Assembly: GCA_023245865.1 (NCBI GenBank) | Contig: JAHFJN010000001.1 | Location: 398,587-462,586, forward strand | Origin: Candidatus Peribacteria bacterium | GTDB taxonomy: Bacteria; Patescibacteriota; Gracilibacteria; Peribacterales; Peribacteraceae | Length of the DNA: 64,000 bases | Direction of reading: 5' to 3' | Part shown: positions 38,055-55,243 of the stretch, in pieces | Layout: every line of letters begins with the position of its first letter | Numbering within the stretch: position 1 is the stretch's first letter | Translations under genes and position numbers: made by a program | Notes under the pieces: model-generated | Told to the model about the DNA's origin: nothing | Databases searched by the model: none | What the model saw: only the letters and a program-made list of their open reading frames with translations

Positions 38055-38130
38055 GGGCAATTAGCTCAGCTGGGTCGAGTCCACCTTGGCGGACGAGCAA
38101 TCAGAAAAGCGCCACTGGCGCTCTAGCCAG
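38055..38130 (+). repeat. fold-back tRNA-Val fragment with inserted core (upstream of tRNA-Val)
   Basis: 38055-38073 equals the first 19 bases of tRNA-Val. Next comes an insert forming a hairpin (GTCCACC/GGCGGAC, one mismatch) and the word ACGAGCAATCAGA. Then AAGCGCCAC resumes the tRNA around positions 24-31, and 38116-38130 (TGGCGCTCTAGCCAG) is the perfect reverse complement of tRNA-Val bases 38178-38192. The same design with the same core precedes tRNA-Ile. No anticodon or 3' half is present, so it is not a tRNA gene. Confidence 0.85.
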
Positions 38131-38162
38131 ACGGTTGAGAAGCTGTCATTATTTATACATTC

Positions 38163-38239
38163 GGGCAATTAGCTCAGCTGGCTAGAGCGCCACATTGACA
38201 TTGTGGAGGTCACTGGTTCAAGTCCAGTATTGCCCACCA
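38163..38239 (+). tRNA. tRNA-Val (GAC)
   Basis: 77 bases with CCA. Acceptor GGGCAAT pairs with ATTGCCC; anticodon stem CCACA/TGTGG encloses TTGACAT, giving GAC. Immediately preceded by a fold-back fragment of itself. Confidence 0.97.
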
Positions 38240-55066: not shown

Positions 55067-55142
55067 TGGTGGGCGATGATGGATTTGAACCATCGACCTC
55101 GACATTATCAGTGTCGCGCTCTAACCCCTGAGCTAATCGCCC
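55067..55142 (-). tRNA. tRNA-Ile (GAU)
   Basis: 76 bases with CCA. Acceptor GGGCGAT pairs with ATCGCCC; anticodon stem CGACA/TGTCG encloses CTGATAA, giving GAU. Preceded, in its direction of transcription, by a fold-back fragment of itself. Confidence 0.97.
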
Positions 55143-55164
55143 GTTTAATGATGGAAAGATTCTA

Positions 55165-55243
55165 TCAGGGGTTAGAGCGCAAGTCGCGCTCATCTGATTG
55201 CTCGTACGCCTCAGGCGTACTCAACCCCCTGAGCTAATCGCCC
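55165..55243 (-). repeat. fold-back tRNA-Ile fragment with inserted core (upstream of tRNA-Ile)
   Basis: On the minus strand, 55243-55225 equals the first 18-19 bases of tRNA-Ile (GGGCGATTAGCTCAGGGGG). Then a hairpin GTACGCC-TGA-GGCGTAC and ACGAGCAATCAGA, then GAGCGCGAC resuming the tRNA. It ends with a 16-base perfect antisense of the tRNA D-arm (55180-55165 against 55131-55116). Core, order and insertion point match the tRNA-Val element at 38055-38130. Confidence 0.87.

What the first reader, a model, noticed from the sequence alone, without database searches (positions are those of the whole stretch)
55067..55243. Second fold-back element at tRNA-Ile with the same core but tRNA-Ile-specific arms
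On the minus strand the tRNA-Ile 5' end (18-19 bases), the core hairpin and ACGAGCAATCAGA, then GAGCGCGAC and a 16-base perfect antisense of the Ile D-arm precede the tRNA. The core hairpin differs from the Val copy by paired changes (GTACGCC/GGCGTAC against GTCCACC/GGCGGAC), while both antisense arms match their own tRNA. Independent arms with a shared core argue for a recurring mechanism rather than one old duplication.
Basis: seen in the sequence. Interest (0 to 1): 0.9.

Follow-up and report, generated by a model that had tools for sequence, protein, structure and literature searches.

The report
Self-templated switch element at tRNA genes
In one family of ultra-small uncultured bacteria (Peribacteria), many tRNA genes are preceded by a roughly 80-base cassette that carries a copy of the tRNA's own front end, a shared hairpin core and a stretch antisense to the tRNA, so that a read-through transcript is predicted to misfold the tRNA into a chimera; no described RNA or DNA element found here looks like it.

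Summary
Covariance models built from it find two core classes: about 77 class-1 and 75 class-2 hits in up to 49 of 74 genomes of one family (Candidatus Peribacteria). None occur in 279 other genomes of the class. Of 118 fetched hits, 107 lie just upstream of a same-strand tRNA, across about 15 isotypes. Each unit is: copy of tRNA nt 1-19; hairpin core; sense copy of nt ~24-31; antisense of nt ~30-13 (class 1) or ~29-21 (class 2); spacer with a -10 box; tRNA. Arms match their own tRNA far beyond permutation. The antisense tracks the real tRNA's nt 20-21 (33 exact matches), not the element's own D-loop. Where leaders have diverged, the copy stays >=0.88 identical from +1 to +18 against ~0.25 upstream of -4: the boundary is the mature tRNA 5' end. 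Predicted folds of element plus tRNA replace the native acceptor stem by element:tRNA pairing. Cores resemble each other by genome, not by isotype, so the element spreads and is re-fitted to each tRNA. Best explanation: a cis-acting alternative tRNA 5' half that redirects read-through transcripts into a tRNA-like chimera. Rival: a DNA-level element shaped by template switching. No Rfam match or description was found. Mechanism inferred; no transcript data.

The parts
55226..55243 (-). copy of tRNA-Ile(gat) nt 1-18 (acceptor 5' strand and D-arm 5' half)
   Evidence: sequence; family-wide the copy is bounded at mature nt +1
55204..55220 (-). core hairpin GTACGCC-TGA-GGCGTAC (class 1)
   Evidence: covariation; 327 of 336 stem pairs Watson-Crick over 55 elements
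55193..55205 (-). conserved ACGAGCAATCAGA (GAGC followed by the A-rich AU-N-R-A-A motif)
   Evidence: class-1 alignment
55183..55191 (-). sense copy of tRNA nt 22-30 (D-stem 3' strand and anticodon-stem 5' strand)
   Evidence: family-wide test
55165..55180 (-). antisense of tRNA nt 12-27, 16 bases, perfect
55143..55164 (-). spacer between element and tRNA; holds a -10-like TAGAAT at -22
55067..55142 (-). tRNA-Ile(gat)
38055..38073 (+). copy of tRNA-Val(gac) nt 1-19
38079..38094 (+). core hairpin GTCCACC-TT-GGCGGAC
38093..38105 (+). conserved ACGAGCAATCAGA
38108..38115 (+). sense copy AGCGCCAC of tRNA-Val (D-stem 3' end and anticodon-stem 5' strand)
38116..38130 (+). antisense of tRNA-Val nt 16-30, 15 bases, perfect
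38131..38162 (+). spacer before tRNA-Val
38163..38239 (+). tRNA-Val(gac)

Best explanation
The element is a cis-acting RNA module that acts as an alternative 5' half for the tRNA gene behind it. Transcription from the promoter in front of the element (kept in many copies) yields an RNA whose front end equals the mature tRNA front end (nt 1-19), with a hairpin inserted in the D-arm (core), an A-rich linker and a copy of the anticodon-stem 5' strand. In the read-through transcript the antisense arm pairs with the real tRNA's 5' half as soon as that half is made. The later 3' half then pairs with the element's copies (acceptor 1-7 with 66-72; 27-31 with 39-43). The result is a tRNA-like chimera with the T-arm and CCA end but an expanded D-arm, and no normal tRNA. 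Transcription from the second promoter, between element and tRNA, gives normal tRNA. The locus thus either makes two RNAs from one 3' half or uses the element to throttle the tRNA. The core spreads among tRNA genes that share the GCTCAG D-arm and is re-fitted to each. Shown: anatomy, arm specificity, mature-end boundary, conservation, distribution. Inferred: transcription, chimera in vivo, its role, the way it spreads.
For: Arms map to tRNA 1-19 sense, ~21-33 sense and ~13-30 antisense and to almost nothing in the 3' half: each native helix that uses a 5'-half strand gets a competitor. Antisense tracks the real tRNA's nt 20-21 in 33 elements over five sequence types and never the element's own GUC. 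In 42 elements with diverged leaders, identity to the tRNA jumps at the mature 5' end (0.21-0.43 at -8 to -3; 0.57 and 0.76 at -2 and -1; 0.88-1.00 at +1 to +18; 0.17 at nt 20). A -10 box is kept upstream of the copy and upstream of the tRNA. Orthologous pairs: copy 0.87 and core flanks 0.83 against spacer 0.61 and leader 0.53. Predicted native acceptor probability falls from 0.95 to 0.11 (class 1) and 0.94 to 0.06 (class 2), below swapped or shuffled elements. Four loci carry the same core inside the D-arm of a second tRNA copy with its own 3' half and no antisense arm, as expected if the antisense only serves to hide a competing 5' half.
Against: No transcript data. Single differences in the copy's nt 1-7 mostly break pairing with the 3' strand (16 of 20), and about 30% of copies in diverged loci have lost match or been invaded by palindromes. 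The element is scattered over isotypes and patchy between sister species, unlike most regulators. The four interrupted tRNA copies show damage. The class-2 antisense arm is short, and its prefix folding barely exceeds the controls (0.56 own, 0.48 swapped). Very few G-U pairs in the hairpin (2 of 336) fit DNA-level hairpin repair as well as RNA selection. Equilibrium folding ignores proteins and tRNA modification.
Confidence: 0.45

Rival explanations
1. A small non-autonomous mobile or recombinogenic DNA element that targets the D-loop of tRNA genes. Tandem duplication of leader plus tRNA 5' part keeps the gene intact; hairpin and antisense arm are kept perfect by replication template switching, not by RNA function.
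For: Cores cluster by genome not isotype; G120 Ile and Arg loci share an almost identical core with different arms; tandem arrays at 11 loci; leader homogenisation in about a third; patchy presence at orthologous tRNAs; nearly no G-U pairs. Template switching is known to make and repair perfect stems (PMC8794818).
Against: It does not predict a sharp boundary at mature tRNA nt +1 in loci whose leaders have diverged, nor better conservation of copy and core than of spacer in orthologues. Y1 transposases are absent from the own genome and from other element-rich ones. No longer, gene-carrying form was seen.
Confidence: 0.3
2. A short antisense RNA from the element's own promoter that acts in trans, or on the nascent transcript, to hold back its tRNA, without forming a chimera with the 3' half.
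For: Own -10 box; 15-16 base perfect antisense in both window copies; T-runs after the core in a few loci.
Against: Only 8 of 94 elements have a T5 run between core and tRNA; it does not explain the copy of tRNA nt 1-19 ending exactly at +1, nor the sense copy of nt 24-31.
Confidence: 0.12
3. Scars of tRNA gene duplication and template switching with no function.
For: Degenerate copies, palindrome insertions and interrupted tRNA copies exist.
Against: Two conserved core classes over dozens of genera, with wholesale but compensated stem replacement; lineage restriction; conserved promoter and boundary.
Confidence: 0.08

Closest known systems
T-box riboswitch
   Same: cis RNA that pairs with parts of one specific tRNA and switches folds
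   Different: a T-box sits upstream of amino-acid genes and reads the anticodon and CCA end of a separate tRNA; this sits upstream of the tRNA gene itself, is antisense to the D-arm and copies the 5' half
yjdF riboswitch with tRNA-like fold (PMC9142559)
   Same: a regulatory RNA that adopts a tRNA-like shape
   Different: small-molecule aptamer in front of a protein gene; no tRNA-specific arms
Permuted, split or intron-containing tRNA genes (PMC3978253, PMC3218864); group I introns in CPR tRNAs (PMC8172020)
   Same: tRNA genes whose 5' and 3' halves are not in the simple order, or are interrupted
   Different: here the complete tRNA is intact and an extra, altered 5' half precedes it; no intron core; four rare copies interrupt a second tRNA in the D-arm
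tmRNA
   Same: tRNA-like ends with an expanded middle, as the predicted chimera would have
   Different: no tag frame or pseudoknots identified; the 3' half is borrowed from a normal tRNA gene
REP/RAYT palindromic elements and other MITEs
   Same: short hairpin elements spread through a genome
   Different: arms match the tRNA at each site; Y1 transposases absent from the own genome

Membership tests
Rfam RNA families (any of 4227) | covariance-model match above the gathering score, other than tRNA | tested here: not met
   over the elements no family is reached; only the tRNAs match
T-box riboswitch | Rfam T-box match (stem I, specifier loop, antiterminator) | tested here: not met
   no T-box match or 43
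REP element mobilised by a RAYT (Y1_Tnp) | Y1 transposase encoded in the genomes that carry the element | tested here: not met
   none in the own genome (5 elements) or G022 (8); Y1 present in 18 of 33 element genomes against 35 of 41 without
REP element mobilised by a RAYT (Y1_Tnp) | hairpin with conserved foot, dispersed in intergenic DNA | tested here: inconclusive
   hairpin with conserved flanks yes, but tied to tRNA genes in 107 of 118 hits
Group I or II intron in tRNA | intron covariance-model match | tested here: not met
   no intron match or 43
Permuted or split tRNA gene | mature tRNA can only be made by joining separated halves | tested here: not met
   an intact tRNA gene follows the element
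Structured RNA under selection | compensatory changes in stems with conserved unpaired core | tested here: met
   template switching could also give compensatory changes (PMC8794818)
Structured RNA under selection | transcribed in vivo | not testable with these tools
   no RNA-seq held

The most novel reading that the evidence does not exclude
Overlapping tRNA genes: one tRNA 3' half serves two promoters and two 5' halves, giving a normal tRNA and a second tRNA-like RNA with a hairpin in its D-arm, with an antisense arm that decides co-transcriptionally which 5' half is used.
Probability: 0.35. Interest if true: 0.95.

Novelty: categorically new. Interest (0 to 1): 0.86.

Why it matters
If the RNA reading is right, bacteria have a form of tRNA control or of tRNA-like RNA production that works by strand exchange within a tRNA transcript, and an element that re-fits its arms to each tRNA it settles on. 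It makes testable how tRNA supply is set in ultra-small bacteria that appear to have few regulators. If the DNA reading is right, it is a tRNA-D-loop-targeting element of a new type. Either way it is a described, searchable family (two covariance models) that current tRNA and Rfam annotation misses.

Tried and rejected
Hammerhead or other small ribozyme: hairpin flanks look alike by eye, but there is no Rfam match and the conserved strands differ. RNase P substitute: RNase P RNA is present in 38 of 40 relatives. RAYT/REP mobility: Y1 transposases do not track the element. Integron attC sites, IS110 bridge RNA and retron were considered from memory; motif order did not fit and no enzyme was seen adjacent. 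A single 13-base pattern was useless: mostly chance matches. Own-genome pattern hits L003 and L004 were not at tRNAs. Ten hits of the genome-wide pattern outside Peribacteria and two viral hits have no tRNA beside them and are taken as chance matches. G-U counting as an RNA-versus-DNA test was inconclusive. R2 hit L161 is a false positive (no tRNA).

Full report
1. Observation. The Ile element is present as described. On the minus strand the order is: copy of tRNA-Ile nt 1-18 (55243-55226), core hairpin (55220-55204), ACGAGCAATCAGA, sense copy of nt 22-30, 16-base antisense of nt 12-27 (55180-55165), 22-base spacer, tRNA-Ile. The Val locus has the same layout with Val-specific arms. The claim of paired hairpin changes is half right for these two copies: one pair is compensated, one is broken.

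2. How many there are. In the own genome the core pattern alone finds only the two window copies at tRNAs. A model from the two copies (R1) already hit related elements at other tRNAs in relatives. A second model from 15 copies (R2) gives about 77 hits in 35 of 74 genomes of the same family, five of them in the own genome: Val, Ile(gat), Arg(tcg), Ile(tat) and one inside a second tRNA-Pro copy. While looking at orthologous tRNAs I met a second core class, CC-Y-A-[hairpin]-G-(T/TG)-ATAAAAA; its model R3 gives 75 hits in 37 of the 74 genomes. Together up to 49 of the 74 genomes have one or the other, counting weak hits. Neither model hits any of 279 genomes of the class outside this family, nor does R2 hit any other family in a phylum-wide sample of 380 genomes. 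An exact-pattern scan of 85,000 species finds true copies only in Candidatus Peribacteria or Peregrinibacteria records (plus one record titled only 'bacterium', which is genome G017); ten other hits and two viral hits have no tRNA beside them.

3. Where they lie. Of 118 fetched hits, 107 have a tRNA downstream on the same strand, 5 end at a contig end, 4 have a tRNA only upstream and 2 have none listed (one is a tandem array at a contig end, one a false positive). The distance from the end of the core match to the tRNA is 47 +/- 7 (class 1) and 38 +/- 4 bases (class 2). Isotypes: Pro, Ala, Ile, Val, His, Arg, Asp, Thr, Gly, Trp, Lys, Met, Asn, Phe, mostly tRNAs with the GCTCAG D-arm. Eleven loci have tandem units of about 90-110 bases.

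4. Arm specificity. Antisense run to own tRNA 10.1 against 6.9 +/- 0.23 permuted. Copy nt 1-9: 7.2 of 9 to own, 4.6 to other isotypes. A scan of the tail against the whole tRNA shows antisense to nt 13-30 and sense to nt 21-33 in class 1 (z up to 10.8), antisense around nt 21-29 in class 2, and little else (controls). Where the antisense can be read across nt 20-21 of the tRNA, 33 elements match the real tRNA exactly (CTA, TTA, CCA, TCA, TA) and none match the element's own GUC. So the arm is fitted to the real tRNA.

5. Signs of function. In 42 elements whose leaders no longer resemble the tRNA's leader, identity between element and tRNA is about 0.25 upstream of -4, 0.57 at -2, 0.76 at -1, 0.88-1.00 from +1 to +18, and 0.17 at nt 20. 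These 42 were selected for a good match over nt 1-15, but that selection does not place a boundary at +1. The boundary is the mature tRNA end, an RNA-level landmark. A -10 box is kept both upstream of the copy and upstream of the tRNA. In orthologous pairs the copy (0.87) and core flanks (0.83) are better kept than tail (0.69), spacer (0.61) and leader (0.53) (some pairs are imperfectly parsed, which lowers the first two). Stems are sometimes replaced wholesale with pairing kept. On 15 copies the hairpin has covariation 0.199 against 0.091 shuffled, 0 of 500.

6. Folding. Alone, the Ile element folds well (z -3.8 to -4.3) and the Val element does not. Element plus tRNA folds into a chimera in both (z -8.5 and -3.9). 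Over the family the native acceptor stem drops from 0.95 to 0.11 (class 1) and 0.94 to 0.06 (class 2), and the element captures the 3' acceptor strand at 0.71 and 0.88; swapped or shuffled elements do less (class 1). These are equilibrium predictions. A prefix ending at tRNA nt 35 shows nt 13-28 already paired with the element (0.72 own, 0.63 swapped, 0.36 shuffled in class 1), but class 2 hardly exceeds its controls.

7. Interrupted tRNA copies. In four loci (own genome Pro, L096; G070 Met, L278; G117 Thr, L287; G016 Thr, L301) an intact tRNA is followed by a second copy in which the D-arm after nt 19 is replaced by the core and which continues into its own 3' half, with no antisense arm. This is the predicted chimera in one piece, though these copies show damage.

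8. Spread. Cores are more alike within a genome at different isotypes than permuted (p 0.004 and 0.0125), and not more alike at the same isotype across genomes (p 0.72 and 0.23). In G120 the Ile and Arg loci share an almost identical 34-base core with different arms. Within one genus different species carry the element at different tRNAs, with empty orthologous sites. Y1 transposases do not track it. How it moves is unknown. Template switching in replication (PMC8794818) could re-fit the arms and keep stems perfect.

9. Verdict. A real, large, lineage-restricted family. RNA function in cis is the best-supported reading (0.45) because of the mature-end boundary, the match to the real tRNA and the conserved promoter; a DNA-level element (0.3) is the main rival, and the two can both be true (spread at DNA level, function at RNA level). 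Literature searches found no description; the library is open-access only, so novelty is stated with that limit.

Noticed in passing
L122, L124, L125, L146, L100, L095, L118: A palindrome of the type CCTGCCTGCCGGCAGGCAGG sits in the 5' tRNA copy of several elements, often exactly between GTAGC and TCAG; in these loci it is not in the real tRNA.
   Followed up: partly
L212 vs L237 (Pro), L209 vs L231 (Thr): The tRNA (with its element or element relic) appears inverted relative to flanking genes between species of one genus.
   Followed up: no
L096 (own genome C3:362450-363000): Intact tRNA-Pro(tgg) followed by a second, damaged tRNA-Pro copy with the core in its D-arm.
   Followed up: yes
L202, L211, L227 and L276-L315: Second core class (CC-Y-A hairpin G-T-(G)ATAAAAA) with the same overall layout and a shorter antisense arm.
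   Followed up: yes
L105, L138, L144, L155, L309: Recurrent change GCTC to GCTT in the D-stem of the 5' copy but not in the real tRNA.
   Followed up: no
L225 (G068): Two tRNA-Trp(cca) genes in opposite orientation about 0.6 kb apart.
   Followed up: no
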